Assembly: GCA_037143175.1 (NCBI GenBank)
Contig: JBAWZF010000022.1
Coordinates: forward strand, 1-45,144
Reading direction: 5' to 3'
From: a bacterium
GTDB lineage: Bacteria; Verrucomicrobiota; Kiritimatiellia; CAIKKV01; CAITUY01
Length of the DNA: 45,144 bases
In this document: one piece after another, positions 4,837-45,144 of the stretch
How positions within the stretch are numbered: the first letter of the stretch is position 1
Layout: every line of letters starts with the position of its first letter
Position numbers and translations under genes: made by a program
Notes under the pieces: model-generated
Told to the model about the DNA's origin: nothing
Database searches by the model: none
Seen by the model: the letters and a program-made list of their open reading frames with translations, nothing else

Positions 4837-5115
4837 ATGAAGAAAATTATCGCAGGTTTGGTAATCGGGATGGTGTTGATGGGCGCGGTTCCCACCGCAA
4901 AAGCAGCCGACGCGGGCGGAGCAGCCATTCTATCGGCCGTGATGCCTGGCTGTGGCGAGTGGTATAATCGTGGTTGGAAAGGCAGCTTCCCCATTGTGGA
5001 ATGTGTAGTTGGGCATATCTGCTGTCTTTTTCAATTGAGTTCCATTATGGATGCCGTAAACGGCAACACGGACGAAGGGTTGCGCCTTGATTTCTGGTCG
5101 GCCCCCTCCAAGTAA
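4837..5115 (+). CDS. Small exported protein of unknown function
   Basis: The start at 4837 is set by an excellent ribosome site (AAGGAGAG, about 8 bases ahead); the in-frame ATG at 4795 is not needed. The 92-residue product opens with a signal peptide (MKKIIAGLVIGMVLMGAVPT, cleavage after AKA). The mature part contains G-G-A-A-I-L-S-A-V-M-P-G-C-G-E-W-Y, a pattern seen in the TM2/DUF5683-like segments of membrane proteins in which a P-G-x-G turn separates two hydrophobic stretches. The same pattern occurs in the C-terminal half of the TPR protein at 6087-7004 (ALLPGAGQLYVERP), so the two may share an ancestral domain. There are five cysteines. The gene ends just before a strong terminator. Confidence 0.6.
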   Translation: MKKIIAGLVIGMVLMGAVPTAKAADAGGAAILSAVMPGCGEWYNRGWKGSFPIVECVVGHICCLFQLSSIMDAVNGNTDEGLRLDFWSAPSK

Positions 5116-5140
5116 AACATCCAGCGCACATCTGCAAAAA

Positions 5141-5174
5141 AGAAGGCCGGGACTTTTCCCGGCCTTCTTTTTTT
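5141..5174. terminator. Strong, probably bidirectional rho-independent terminator
   Basis: A perfect 12-bp stem (AGAAGGCCGGGA at 5141-5152 pairing with 5157-5168) closes a 4-base loop. It is followed by a T-run on the + strand and preceded by an A-run at 5136-5140, which gives a U-run on the opposite transcript. It sits between the stop of the small exported protein (+) and the stop of the lipoprotein gene at 5188 (-), so it can end both transcripts. Confidence 0.93.
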
Positions 5175-5187
5175 ACTTTATTTTGAA

Positions 5188-5619
5188 TTACTTCTTAAAC
5201 ATGAATGCCTGACCTTCGCCTGTTGACGTAGCCTTAAACATAATAGGCACTAACACATAGCAACAAGGAATGCACAGGTTGCTGTACTTGGTATCCCATT
5301 GAACATCAACCACGCCATCGGCATTCGGATAAGCCCCTTTCGCAGCCTTCATTAGGTTCCCGTATCCATTATCCCCTTTAGCCCATAACGCCAGAATACA
5401 CTGACTTTCACCCTTTGCAGTCACTGGACCAAGGATCACTATGTCGTTCCGGTTAACCTTGAACTTCGTGATGGAATCCCGCTGAGTCGGATAATTAACA
5501 TCAGAGAACAAGAACCCGGGCGACACCCCTGAAGGCGGGATGCCCATGGGAGGGCTGACACATCCCGCCAAAAAGAAGGTCGCGATGAACGCAACCATAA
5601 TACCCGCATAAGGCCTCAT
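5188..5619 (-). CDS. Lipoprotein, TRL-like; paralogue of the upstream gene
   Basis: The ATG at 5619 begins a lipoprotein signal (MRPYAGIMVAFIATFFLAGC), with the lipobox Leu-Ala-Gly-Cys; the longer frame from 5673 lacks this logic. After the lipidated Cys comes PPSGVSPGFLFSDVNYP, then V-I-L-G-P-V-T-A-K-G-E-S-Q-C-I-L-A-L-W-A-K-G-D-N-G-Y-G-N-L and a final D-G-V-V-D-V-Q-W-D-T. The order of strand, S-C-I-L-G-L-x-A-x-G-D and V-x-V-x-x-D recalls the TRL-like lipoprotein family, whose role is unknown. It differs from its upstream paralogue in a Cys-rich stretch (LCIPCCYVLVPI). The gene starts 22 bases after that paralogue ends, so the pair is a tandem duplication in one operon. Confidence 0.7.
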   Translation of the reverse strand: MRPYAGIMVAFIATFFLAGCVSPPMGIPPSGVSPGFLFSDVNYPTQRDSITKFKVNRNDIVILGPVTAKGESQCILALWAKGDNGYGNLMKAAKGAYPNADGVVDVQWDTKYSNLCIPCCYVLVPIMFKATSTGEGQAFMFKK

Positions 5620-39602: not shown

Positions 39603-40919
39603 TCATCGCCCCGCCAACATGTCCAACGGACTCTTCGCCGGGCTGCGCATATCCTTTACTACATGCGTATAAATCATGGTCGTTTCGACATGAGAGTGAC
39701 CAAGGTATTCCTGGATCTGCCGGATATCCACTCCCTGTAATAGCAAATGTGTGGCAAAGGAATGCCTCAACGTATGGACGGAGGCCGGTTTCACAATTCC
39801 TGTTGCTTGAACCGCCGCGCGTACAGCCGACTGGATGAAGCCGTCACTGGCATGATATCGCCGGATTTTACCACCTCTGGGGTCTGGGGAAAGTTTGGAC
39901 GATGGGAACACATATTGCCAACCCCAGGCACACCCGGCCTTCGGGTATTTGATTGACAATGCATGGGGTAACCAGACTTCGCCCGCTCCCGCCGCCAGAT
40001 CCTCCTCATGGAGCTTTTTGACGCGCTCCAAATGTTTTCTTAACGGCTCTTTTACAGACTCTGCCATCAGGGTGCTCCGGTCTTTATCGCCTTTTCCCTC
40101 CCGGACAAATACAAGGCTGTTGTCAAAATCCAAGTCTTTTACCCGCAGGCGACAACACTCCATCACCCGCAACCCGCCGCCATAGATCACTTCGGCCATT
40201 AGGCGTGTCGTTCCTTTCATGTACCCCAGAATTTTCTGAACCTCCGTTACAGTTAAGACAACAGGCAATTTCGGGCCTCGTTTGGCTCGTACGGCATGCT
40301 CCAAGTCTCCGATTTCAATATGTAGGATTTCACGACAAAGAAACAATAAGGCGCCGAATGCCTGGTTTTGTGTTGAAGCGGCAACATTGCGGCGGGTTGC
40401 CAGGTATGCGAGAAAATCTTTAATTCGTCCGCTGCTGATTGCGTATCCCCCTGCAGGCGATTTCTGTTGGGTTTCCTCAAGATAGCCCAAAAACCTCCTC
40501 GCCCAATCCAGATAGGTTCGTTCCGTTGTATAGGAGTAATGTTTCATTTGGAGCACGGTCCGCAGGGTAGCAAGGGTCTCATCGCCGGGAAACGAACCAT
40601 CTTGAAACGGCCTGACGGATGAGGCCACAACGGCTGGAGATTGTTGGTCCTTGGAGAAATTGACAATATAAAGCCGGACTGCTTTTTCAGCCTGCTCCAC
40701 CTGCCAATCCTTATACGAGCCACAAGCCTGGAGTTCTTCAAGGAAATGGGCAATACGATCCTCGATAGAGGGAATGGGCACTTCTATCCGTCGCGTCAGG
40801 AATTTCCGAACCCAAAATACAAGATAACGCTCATGCCCCGCCTGAATGAATCGCTGTTTAAGCAGGAATACCCCGAACTGGGAAAGTTGTATCTCTTGAT
40901 TTGCTAATAAGTTATCCAT
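39603..40919 (-). CDS. intI: Integron integrase (tyrosine recombinase), long form
   Basis: This 438-residue protein has AAGGTGGAG ahead of its ATG. The catalytic set of a tyrosine recombinase is complete: Arg251 (G-G-G-L-R-V-M-E), Lys277 (G-K-G-D-K-D-R), His382 and Arg385 (H-T-L-R-H-S-F-A-T-H), His408 (L-G-H-S) and Tyr417 (M-I-Y-T-H-V). The extra IntI helix, which binds the bulged bases of folded attC, is present: L-P-H-A-L-S-I-K-Y-P-K-A-G, W-G-W-Q-Y-V-F-P-S and D-P-R-G-G-K-I-R-R-Y-H (about 317-355). Typical IntI has about 320-340 residues; here about 95 residues precede the normal SAM-like N-domain. They contain a second, similar helical segment (R-Y-L-V-F-W-V-R-K-F-L). It cuts and joins attC and attI sites to gain or shuffle cassettes. 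Confidence 0.97.
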   Translation of the reverse strand: MDNLLANQEIQLSQFGVFLLKQRFIQAGHERYLVFWVRKFLTRRIEVPIPSIEDRIAHFLEELQACGSYKDWQVEQAEKAVRLYIVNFSKDQQSPAVVASSVRPFQDGSFPGDETLATLRTVLQMKHYSYTTERTYLDWARRFLGYLEETQQKSPAGGYAISSGRIKDFLAYLATRRNVAASTQNQAFGALLFLCREILHIEIGDLEHAVRAKRGPKLPVVLTVTEVQKILGYMKGTTRLMAEVIYGGGLRVMECCRLRVKDLDFDNSLVFVREGKGDKDRSTLMAESVKEPLRKHLERVKKLHEEDLAAGAGEVWLPHALSIKYPKAGCAWGWQYVFPSSKLSPDPRGGKIRRYHASDGFIQSAVRAAVQATGIVKPASVHTLRHSFATHLLLQGVDIRQIQEYLGHSHVETTMIYTHVVKDMRSPAKSPLDMLAGR

Positions 40920-41300
40920 GCTCCACCTTTAATTATCATGCTATGAGATTAAACACCTATTACTGTTAATACCGGCCAAAGGTGAACGAAAAGGCCATAT
41001 TTAAAGCCCCGGTTCACGTCATGGTCTCCTCAATATGTTAACGGATACATAGCACGGTTTATTATAGTTAAATGTTAATTAAACTATTTATTTTAAATTG
41101 ATCTATTGGCGGGTAAGCTGCAGGACGGAGCGTGGCGACACCCATACATTGGGCAAAACATTATAAACGCAAAGGCGTTATGTTAAAAACGGTTTTATGA
41201 AAGCGCATTAAAAAGTTTCTCAGGAACAATAAGCTTGCTCTGACCAAATGCATAGGAATACCCTTGCTGGCTGGAAATGTGATTAAGAACATATATAATG
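40920..41300. promoter_or_regulatory. Integrase leader with putative attI ending at 41300
   Basis: This 381-base AT-rich segment lies between the integrase start and the first cassette. It holds the promoter of intI (minus) and should hold the cassette promoter and the attI site. The attI crossover is placed at the GTT of 41300-41302, because cassette C1 then begins TTCCCC exactly like C9. An imperfect palindrome (TAGTTAAATG to AAACTATT, near 41067-41090) and a small hairpin with G-T-T-A-T-G-T-T (AACGCAAAGGCGTT at 41167-41180) lie inside. No attC-like fold ends at 41300, which fits attI. Exact promoter elements were not resolved. Confidence 0.5.
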
Positions 41301-41352
41301 TTCCCCTGATGAGATGATGGATGAAAACCGGAGGAAGAGATTTGAACAGAAG
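41300..41352 (+). repeat. Cassette-leader repeat, copy 1 (identical to 45049-45101)
   Basis: These 53 bases (from the G of the GTT crossover to GAACAGAAG) are identical to 45049-45101 and nearly so to 44797-44855. They form the start of cassette C1 and contain a GGAGGAAGAG purine stretch but no conserved open frame, so the repeat marks a cassette family rather than a gene. Confidence 0.9.
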
Positions 41353-41444
41353 CTCGCGAAGACCGCAAAGAAATGCATGTGCATGCCGCCTGCGGCGGTA
41401 AGAATATTTCTTAACTTCGCGTTCTTTGCGTGCTTCTGTTTAAA
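41341..41444. repeat. Large inverted repeat filling non-coding cassette C1
   Basis: The left arm (TTTGAACAGAAG, GCGAAGA, GCAAAGAA; 41341-41372) pairs with the right arm (CTTCGCG, TTCTTTGCG, GCTTCTGTTTAAA; 41415-41444). A small inner hairpin (GCCGCCTGCGGCGG region) sits in the loop. The paired arms span about 30 bases each with few mismatches. Cassette C9 has the same arms (44844-44947) with changed bases, some paired on both sides, suggesting the fold rather than the sequence is kept. No protein gene fits in the cassette. Confidence 0.8.
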
Positions 41445-41487
41445 CTGAATTTCTTATCTTGACCAGGATTCCGAAGGATAAATAAAA

Positions 41488-41549
41488 GGAGAACCACCCG
41501 CTCCTCGGTACGGCTCGCAAGCTCGCCGTCCGAGAGCAGGGCGTTCGCA
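41488..41549 (+). other. attC site of cassette C1
   Basis: R'' (GGAGAAC, AAC at 41492-41494) and R' (GTTCGCA, GTT at 41543-41545) bound a stem in which GCTCCTCGGTACGGC pairs with GCCGTCCGAGAGC, leaving two unpaired bases as the extrahelical bases typical of attC. Its R'' complements GTTCTCC, one base off the cassette's own leading TTCCCC. Confidence 0.85.
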
Positions 41550-44525: not shown

Positions 44526-44583
44526 ACCCTACCGTTGTCCCGCGTGGACGCGGGTCAACGTCGGGTTAGGCCGGGCGTTGGGG
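44511..44583 (+). other. attC site of cassette C7 (overlaps the gene end)
   Basis: AAC at 44513-44515 and GTT at 44577-44579. GGCCTGAACCCTACCGTTG pairs with CAACGTCGGGTTAGGCC, then CCCGCG with CGCGGG around a 4-base loop. R'' GGCCAAC is the exact complement of GTTGGCC, the start of cassette C7. The stop codon of the HNH gene (TGA at 44523-44525) lies in the left arm. Confidence 0.93.
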
Positions 44584-44619
44584 AATGAGATTGAAGAGAT
44601 GATGGATAGGAATTAATTC

Positions 44620-44707
44620 AATGTGGGAGGGGCACTCCGTGCCGCGACAGGTCCCGGGAGGATCTGAACGGGACAAGAATCGCCGCGCGGAGCGCGCCTC
44701 CCACATT
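44620..44707. repeat. Large hairpin filling non-coding cassette C8
   Basis: The left arm AATGTGGGAGGGGCACTCCG (44620-44639) pairs with CGGAGCGCGCCTCCCACATT (44688-44707), and GCCGCGAC-type sequence and GTCCC/GGGAC pairs extend the fold inward, so nearly all 88 bases are self-complementary. No protein gene of the cassette avoids this hairpin. Its GC-rich, almost perfect arms resemble the palindromic intergenic elements seen elsewhere in such genomes. Confidence 0.85.
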
Positions 44708-44739
44708 GGGGGAACTCAGGATGGTCAAAACAAGGACAA

Positions 44740-44803
44740 CCCCAACAACACACTCGTGCCTACCGTCGCTAAACGCTCCGGTGGCACAGTGTGAATGTTC
44801 CCC
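44740..44803 (+). other. attC site of cassette C8
   Basis: AAC at 44744-44746 and GTT at 44797-44799. CCCCAACAACACACTCGTGCC pairs with GGCACAGTGTGAATGTTCCCC except for small bulges, around the loop TACCGTCGCTAAACGCTCCG. R'' CCCCAAC complements GTTGGGG, the start of cassette C8, rather than the TTCCCC to its right. Confidence 0.93.
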
Positions 44804-44855
44804 GAAGAGATGATGAATGGATGAAGAAACCCGGAGGAAGAGATTTGAACAGAAG
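44797..44855 (+). repeat. Cassette-leader repeat, diverged copy 2
   Basis: This start of cassette C9 aligns with 41300-41352 and 45049-45101 with a few changes and a small insertion (GATGATGAATGGATGAAG in place of GATGATGGATGAA). It ends in the same GAGGAAGAGATTTGAACAG stretch. Confidence 0.85.
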
Positions 44856-44947
44856 GTCACGAAGACCACAAAGAATTGGTTTTTGTGCCGCCGGCGGCGG
44901 CAGGAAACAACTCTACCCTTCGTGATCTTTGCGGGCTTCTGTTCAAA
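44844..44947. repeat. Large inverted repeat filling non-coding cassette C9
   Basis: The left arm (TTTGAACAGAAG, CACGAAGA, CACAAAGAA; 44844-44875) pairs with the right arm (CCTTCGTG, ATCTTTGCGG, GCTTCTGTTCAAA; 44917-44947); the loop holds GCCGCCGGCGGCGGC. It is homologous to 41341-41444, with bases that differ between the two copies falling in paired positions. No open frame of the + strand is supported. Confidence 0.8.
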
Positions 44948-44986
44948 TTGAATTGGACGACCAGCAGGGGAAAAGGATTATAATGC

Positions 44987-45055
44987 GGAGAACCAGCGGT
45001 CGCACTGTACACCTCACCCTGACGGGTTCGGTGCCAGTGAACCGCAGCGTTCCCC
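44987..45055 (+). other. attC site of cassette C9
   Basis: AAC at 44991-44993 and GTT at 45049-45051. GAACCAGCGGTCGCACTG pairs with CAGTGAACCGCAGCGTTC, around a loop with an inner CCCTGACGGG hairpin. R'' GGAGAAC differs by one base from the complement of its own leading GTTCCCC, exactly as in C1, so C1 and C9 are related cassettes. Confidence 0.92.
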
Positions 45056-45101
45056 TGATGAGATGATGGATGAAAACCGGAGGAAGAGATTTGAACAGAA
45101 G
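45049..45101 (+). repeat. Cassette-leader repeat, copy 3 (start of cassette C10)
   Basis: These 53 bases are identical to 41300-41352. After them the sequence departs from C1 and C9 (GTAGGATGAGAAGG), and the cassette continues beyond the window. It may be a third member of the non-coding cassette family or a hybrid. Confidence 0.9.
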
Positions 45102-45144
45102 GTAGGATGAGAAGGCTGGTCTCGCTCTCACGTGATAAATTAAT

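What the first reader, a model, noticed from the sequence alone, without database searches (positions are those of the whole stretch)
41300..41543. Family of cassettes without protein genes built on a conserved giant hairpin (C1, C9, probably C10)
C1 and C9 share their leader (with C10), a pair of arms about 30 bases long and the same kind of attC, yet neither has a plausible protein gene. Several differences between the two hairpins fall in both arms, as expected if base pairing is selected. They could encode a structured RNA, a promoter or terminator unit for neighbouring cassettes, or be a selfish palindromic element that became a cassette by acquiring an attC. Their presence at the first and last complete positions of the visible array means repeated capture or recombination.
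Basis: partly seen in the sequence, partly recalled or inferred. Interest (0 to 1): 0.75.

Follow-up and report, generated by a model that had tools for sequence, protein, structure and literature searches.

The report
Integron cassettes carrying genomic palindromic repeats
Three "gene-less" integron cassettes in a bacterium probably related to Kiritimatiellota carry, instead of a gene, a copy of a palindromic repeat scattered through these genomes; it is a mobile passenger and a target of an RNA-guided-type insertion sequence, and it shows no sign of being an RNA gene.

Summary
C1 (41301-41543) and C9 (44798-45049) are true integron cassettes with good attC sites, a shared leader, a 104-nt hairpin and no protein gene. 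C10 is a second C1 copy. It is cut at the contig end by an IS1111-group insertion sequence and continues on contig C59. The joined 53 + 197 nt are identical to C1, and identity ends at G^TT at both cassette ends.

The interpretation changes. The hairpin is a dispersed palindromic repeat: 9-nt units NNCRCRAAG behind TTTGAACAGAAG. It was found in 32 of 97 relatives' genomes, with up to 59 arm matches in one genus member. Of 49 non-cassette stretches tested, none carries an attC. Across 39 copies the free positions of the two arms are independent (140 Watson-Crick pairs against 143.6 in shuffled arms). C1 and C9 differ by one compensatory change, not several.

A second gene-less cassette, C8, carries a different dispersed REP-like palindrome. 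It has at least 6 copies here and relatives in other species' arrays.

Best reading: gene-less cassettes whose payload is a chromosomal palindrome, copied by integron recombination, with no demonstrated function. A regulatory effect (mRNA hairpin, promoter) remains possible.

The parts
39603..40919 (-). integron integrase gene intI (438 aa)
   Evidence: Pfam Phage_integrase 1.1e-36 and Phage_int_SAM_4; 49-70% identical relatives in Kiritimatiellaeota and Desulfobulbales-type records
41272..41299 (+). candidate cassette promoter Pc (TGGAAA-16-TATAAT), ending at the attI/C1 junction
   Evidence: 10 of 12 consensus match; promoter-like sites in the region are not above chance as a class
41301..41543 (+). 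gene-less cassette C1 (G^TT to G^TT)
   Evidence: attC model hit 41488-41549; identity with the C10/C59 copy ends exactly at G^TT on both sides
41341..41444 (.). C1 copy of the dispersed palindromic repeat (arms 41341-41370 and 41415-41444)
   Evidence: genomic copies
41488..41549 (+). attC of C1, including R' of the next cassette
   Evidence: 68.1 bits (this sequence was in the model)
44578..44797 (+). gene-less cassette C8, built on a different dispersed REP-like palindrome
   Evidence: attC 44740-44803; further copies on C59, 94-98% identical
44619..44708 (.). C8 palindrome TGTGGGAGGGGC...GCGCCTCCCACA
   Evidence: z = -6.5
44798..45049 (+). gene-less cassette C9
   Evidence: attC 44987-45055
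44844..44947 (.). C9 copy of the dispersed palindromic repeat; its nearest relative found is an intergenic copy, G001:C76
45050..45099 (+). C10: leader and first arm bases of a second C1 cassette; continued on contig C59
   Evidence: 53/53 nt identical to C1 from 45049; the C59 end is identical to C1 over 197 nt
45100..45144 (+). left end of an IS1111-group insertion sequence inserted in the hairpin arm (TTTGAACAGA|AGGTAGG ATGAGAAGGCT)
   Evidence: the same left end at the same target at the end of contig C56; complete copies at the same site in G005:C105 and G003:C110

Best explanation
C1, C9 and C10 are gene-less integron cassettes of one lineage whose payload is a copy of a dispersed palindromic repeat of the host genome (REP-like in behaviour). 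Steps shown: they have genuine attC sites; the repeat occurs across the family and class, mostly outside integrons; C1 and C10 are identical and bounded exactly at the attC cleavage points, so the cassette has been copied as a unit; and an IS1111-group insertion sequence has entered the arm of C10 at the same target base as in chromosomal copies. Steps inferred: IntI did the copying by ordinary attC x attI/attC recombination; the repeat entered the cassette lineage once, before C1 and C9 diverged; and the cassettes persist as passengers, with at most an incidental effect of a stable hairpin on the array transcript.
For: Arms are dispersed: 16 arm matches in the own genome and 13, 59, 32 and 21 in G001, G003, G004 and G006, against 0 for the reversed control pattern in every genome; 32 of 97 relatives have them. 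Forty-nine other stretches with arms hold no attC (72 kb; best hit E = 0.097, partial). The closest copy to C9 lies between two chromosomal genes. C1 and C10/C59 are identical over 53 + 197 nt, with identity ending at G^TT at both ends. Free arm positions are independent (140 against 143.6 +/- 8.4 in shuffles, p 0.68), position 22 avoids pairing (1 against 14.0 +/- 2.8), and no strand polarity of G.T against A.C is seen (p 0.28). There is no coding constraint and no Rfam match. A second dispersed palindrome (C8) forms gene-less cassettes too.
Against: Three hairpins in one array are many for a chance passenger, although they are one cassette lineage. Arm positions 15 and 24 do covary (34 and 32 against 23.3 +/- 2.4); I read this as a CGC/CAC subtype because the change runs through all units of a copy, but some selection on pairing is not excluded. 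C1 directly follows a candidate Pc, a place where a hairpin could matter. The C22-C59 join is inferred from contig ends, not from a read.
Confidence: 0.78

Rival explanations
1. The cassettes are regulatory: like gene-less cassettes of Vibrio and Treponema they supply a promoter to downstream cassettes, or their hairpin shapes the array transcript (stability, processing, read-through).
For: Most of the gene-less Vibrio cassettes tested had sense-strand promoter activity (PMC11014356), as did some oral Treponema-type ones (PMC6557892). C1 lies next to a candidate Pc, so the array transcript would begin with this hairpin.
Against: No promoter-like site inside C1 or C9, and no excess in the region (4 found, 4.8 +/- 2.2 in shuffles), though the Vibrio paper has a section saying such promoters cannot be found in silico. 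No run of T follows the hairpin. Hairpin copies lie in many other contexts.
Confidence: 0.25
2. The hairpin is a structured RNA gene kept by selection on base pairing (one of the first reader's options; precedent sRNA-Xcc1 in a Xanthomonas integron cassette).
For: Strong fold (z -5.1 to -7.4 on both strands); one compensatory change between C1 and C9; covariation at arm positions 15 and 24.
Against: Arms pair no better than shuffled arms over 39 copies, one position avoids pairing, no strand preference of wobble pairs, no Rfam match, loops unrelated or filled with other palindromes, 77-325 nt long.
Confidence: 0.06
3. The palindrome is an active non-autonomous transposable element (MITE- or REP-like) that inserted into the cassettes itself and uses the integron as an additional vehicle.
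For: Copies in intergenic and apparently in coding sequence, single arms as well as pairs, other palindromes nested between the arms; a second palindrome family shows the same habit.
Against: No mobilising enzyme was tied to it: only 1 of 30 Y1-transposase loci has an arm-like motif nearby. I did not compare filled with empty sites, so no target duplication is shown.
Confidence: 0.35
4. C1 and C9 encode a small protein of about 44 aa, read from ATG in the leader through the hairpin.
For: An open frame of equal layout in both (MDENRRKRFEQK...FCLN and MDEETRRKRFEQK...FCSN).
Against: 21 nonsynonymous against 2 synonymous codon changes, evenly spread over codon positions; the middle is unrelated. 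The 9-nt units lack stop codons in this frame, so an open frame is expected.
Confidence: 0.04

Closest known systems
Gene-less (ORF-less) integron cassettes of Vibrionaceae superintegrons (PMC11014356) and oral Treponema (PMC6557892)
   Same: Cassettes with attC and no protein gene in large chromosomal arrays rich in toxin-antitoxin-type cassettes; duplicated cassettes.
   Different: The payload here is a genome-wide palindromic repeat; promoter activity is unknown. Those papers, as far as searched, do not describe dispersed palindromes as payload (no occurrence of 'palindrom' or 'hairpin' in PMC11014356).
REP/BIME elements with TnpA-REP (RAYT) transposases
   Same: Short palindromes in many copies, mostly between genes, and targets of an IS1111-group insertion sequence, as ISPa11 targets REP in Pseudomonas aeruginosa (PMC11187229).
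   Different: The TTTGAACAGAAG repeat is longer (77-325 nt with nested palindromes) and not seen beside Y1 transposase genes. The C8 palindrome resembles REP and is clustered around two such genes in G004.
IS1111-group insertion sequences with seekRNA (PMC11187229)
   Same: PF02371 transposase, 11-bp subterminal inverted repeats 7 nt from the left and 3 nt from the right end, no target duplication, downstream noncoding region carrying both strands of the target.
   Different: The target is the arm of this palindrome family; in C10 that puts the insertion inside a cassette body, whereas ISKpn4 and ISPst6 target one end of attC.
sRNA-Xcc1 cassette of Xanthomonas (PMC12444791, PMC6557892)
   Same: Cassette-borne noncoding sequence.
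   Different: No evidence for an RNA here.

Membership tests
Gene-less integron cassette | bounded by attC and movable as a unit | tested here: met
   attC model hits; C1 and C10 identical with ends exactly at G^TT
Gene-less integron cassette | no ORF over 70 aa in the cassette | tested here: met
   one search lists no ORF of 80 aa or more inside C1 or C9 (one antisense 91-aa frame runs from C1 into C2); the sense frame through the hairpin is about 44 codons without coding constraint; 70-80 aa was not listed separately, but each cassette is only about 245 nt
Gene-less integron cassette | promoter activity (most of those tested in Vibrio) | not testable with these tools
   in-silico scan uninformative
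REP/RAYT palindromes | dispersed short palindromes outside genes | tested here: met
   but some single arms appear to lie in coding sequence
REP/RAYT palindromes | copies flank a RAYT (Y1 transposase) gene | tested here: not met
   1 of 30 Y1_Tnp loci has an arm-like motif; for the C8 palindrome two loci carry 6-7 hits with about 0.3-0.4 expected
MITE | precise insertion with target duplication, ends of a known IS | not tested
   no filled/empty site pair compared
Structured noncoding RNA | covariation supporting the helix | tested here: not met
   exception arm positions 15 and 24
IS1111 group (element in C10) | PF02371 transposase | tested here: met
   in the full-length homologues G005:C105 and G003:C110; the own genome's internal part is not in the assembly
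IS1111 group (element in C10) | 11-13 bp subterminal repeats with 7/3 nt extensions, no target duplication | tested here: met
   ATGAGAAGGCT...AGCCTTCTCAT; flanks rejoin to GAACAGA|AGCTCGCG

The most novel reading that the evidence does not exclude
Dispersed genomic palindromes of two unrelated families have each become the payload of amplified gene-less cassettes. The integron would then act as a copying vehicle for selfish palindromes, and the palindromes as landing sites through which RNA-guided-type insertion sequences enter and rearrange cassette arrays.
Probability: 0.25. Interest if true: 0.6.

Novelty: new variant of a known kind. Interest (0 to 1): 0.42.

Why it matters
Gene-less cassettes are a recurring puzzle of superintegrons, mostly discussed as promoters or small-RNA genes. 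Here two such cassette types are traced to repeats of the host genome, which gives a concrete origin for noncoding cassettes and warns against reading a strong hairpin as an RNA gene. It also links three mobile systems (integron, palindromic repeat, IS1111-group insertion sequence) at single-base resolution.

Tried and rejected
Structured RNA by Rfam (none) and by covariation (rejected). Strand polarity of wobble pairs as a sign of RNA selection (p 0.28). Small conserved protein (rejected). Hairpin as an attC-like site: it does begin TTTGAAC and end GTTYAAA like attC core sites, and a crude search flagged it, but the attC model does not hit it. RAYT mobilisation of the arms (no link). Intrinsic terminator (no run of T after the stem). 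Plasmids: no match to C1. IMG/VR: one contig with one arm motif (not examined). A leader pattern search in the own genome with 3 mismatches found nothing because the leaders differ by indels.

Full report
Setting. The nearest named relative of its integron integrase (39603-40919, minus strand) is a Kiritimatiellaeota metagenome bin at 61% identity; an unnamed bin has 70% over part of the protein. The host is therefore probably from that group, but this is inference. A covariance model built from 22 attC sites of this array finds nine attC sites in the window and many more on contig C59, with others on C33, C45 and further contigs. C59 is a long continuation of the array, full of toxin-antitoxin-like cassettes as judged by reading the sequence.

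The cassettes. C1 (41301-41543) and C9 (44798-45049) have proper attC sites and the same leader, and no gene. The 104-nt hairpins fold far better than shuffled sequence. The only open frame seen through both has no sign of protein selection.

C10 and the insertion sequence. C10 equals C1 for 53 nt and then departs inside the left arm. The end of C59 equals C1 for 197 nt from the same arm onward, and identity stops exactly at G^TT of the attC. The two foreign pieces carry ATGAGAAGGCT and AGCCTTCTCAT. Contig C56 ends at the same base of the same foreign sequence, in another copy of the repeat, outside an array as far as seen (no attC in that stretch). In two other species, complete elements of 1454 and 1542 bp with a PF02371 transposase sit at the identical base of a repeat arm, TTTGAACAGA|AG; a third relative of 1597 bp uses a related site. 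The spacing (7 nt left, 3 nt right, no duplication) is that of the IS1111 group (PMC11187229). So C10 is most simply a second C1 cassette split by such an element, with C22 and C59 as its two sides. This is inferred from contig ends.

What the hairpin is. The arm motif TTTGAACAGAAG-NNCRCRAAG-NNCRCRAAG is dispersed: 16 arm matches in the own genome, 59 in G003, and present in 32 of 97 relatives, with no match for the reversed control pattern in any genome. Forty-seven extracted pairs (two of them overlapping alternatives of others) range from 77 to 325 nt; many carry CCGCCNNNGGCGG-like tips, others carry nested palindromes between the same arms. Single arms occur within what look like coding regions (read by eye). 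Fifty stretches holding arms or the C56 end, 72 kb in all, contain no attC apart from one partial hit at E = 0.097. In the relatives, hairpin contigs and attC contigs hardly overlap in the lists returned, but those lists are truncated.

Test of base-pair selection. For 39 pairs in register, Watson-Crick pairs at the eight variable positions number 140, against 143.6 +/- 8.4 when arms are shuffled between copies. Position 22 avoids pairing (1 against 14.0), while positions 15 and 24 covary (34 and 32 against 23.3), as a CGC/CAC subtype common to a whole copy. The copies are related, so these shuffles are a guide, not a strict probability. The paired look of the arms thus reflects conservation of one motif in both arms, and C1 against C9 shows one compensatory change, not several.

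A second family. C8 (44578-44797) is also gene-less and carries another palindrome (TGTGGGAGGGGC...). There are five more copies on C59, four of them complete and 94-98% identical and one cut by the contig end, and related sequence inside attC arrays of G004 (C9, C31), G001 (C120) and G002 (C75). The same palindrome occurs outside arrays and, in G004, clusters around two Y1 transposase genes.

Mechanism and limits. The best reading is a passenger: a chromosomal palindrome included in a gene-less cassette and copied by the integron. Recombination by IntI is inferred from the boundaries. A role for the hairpin at the start of the array transcript, or promoter activity as in Vibrio (PMC11014356) and Treponema (PMC6557892), remains open and needs a reporter test. 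Literature searches returned no account of palindromic repeats in Kiritimatiellota integrons among the open papers held; that is not proof of absence.

Noticed in passing
L091 (G005:C105), L092 (G003:C110), L093 (G005:C372); window 45100-45144: IS1111-group elements whose downstream noncoding region carries two short guide-like slots matching their own target: in L091 GAACAGAAG (top) and TTCGCGTGCT (bottom), together 0 of 5000 shuffles; in L093 the bottom slot reads TTTGCGACT and matches its different target. Looks like naturally re-programmed seekRNAs aimed at palindrome arms.
   Followed up: partly
window 44578-44797; L029 (C59): C8-type gene-less cassette in at least six copies, with relatives in arrays of other species; its palindrome clusters near Y1 transposase genes in G004 (L111, L119).
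   Followed up: partly
L029 reverse complement 5063-5237: A further gene-less cassette with the GTTCCCC leader and GGAGAACC tail but without the hairpin arms.
   Followed up: partly
G000 contigs C33, C45, C12, C9, C42, C43: attC sites near contig ends: the superintegron seems to be broken into several contigs, two of the breaks lying at repeated gene-less cassettes.
   Followed up: no
39 hairpins, arm position 22: Watson-Crick pairing between the arms is strongly avoided at this one position (1 of 39; 14 expected). Possibly an intrinsic left/right difference of the arms; unexplained.
   Followed up: partly
L146, L147, L153, L156, L160, L161, L165, L168, L169, L170: Composite repeats of about 200-325 nt with other palindromes nested between the same outer arms.
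   Followed up: no
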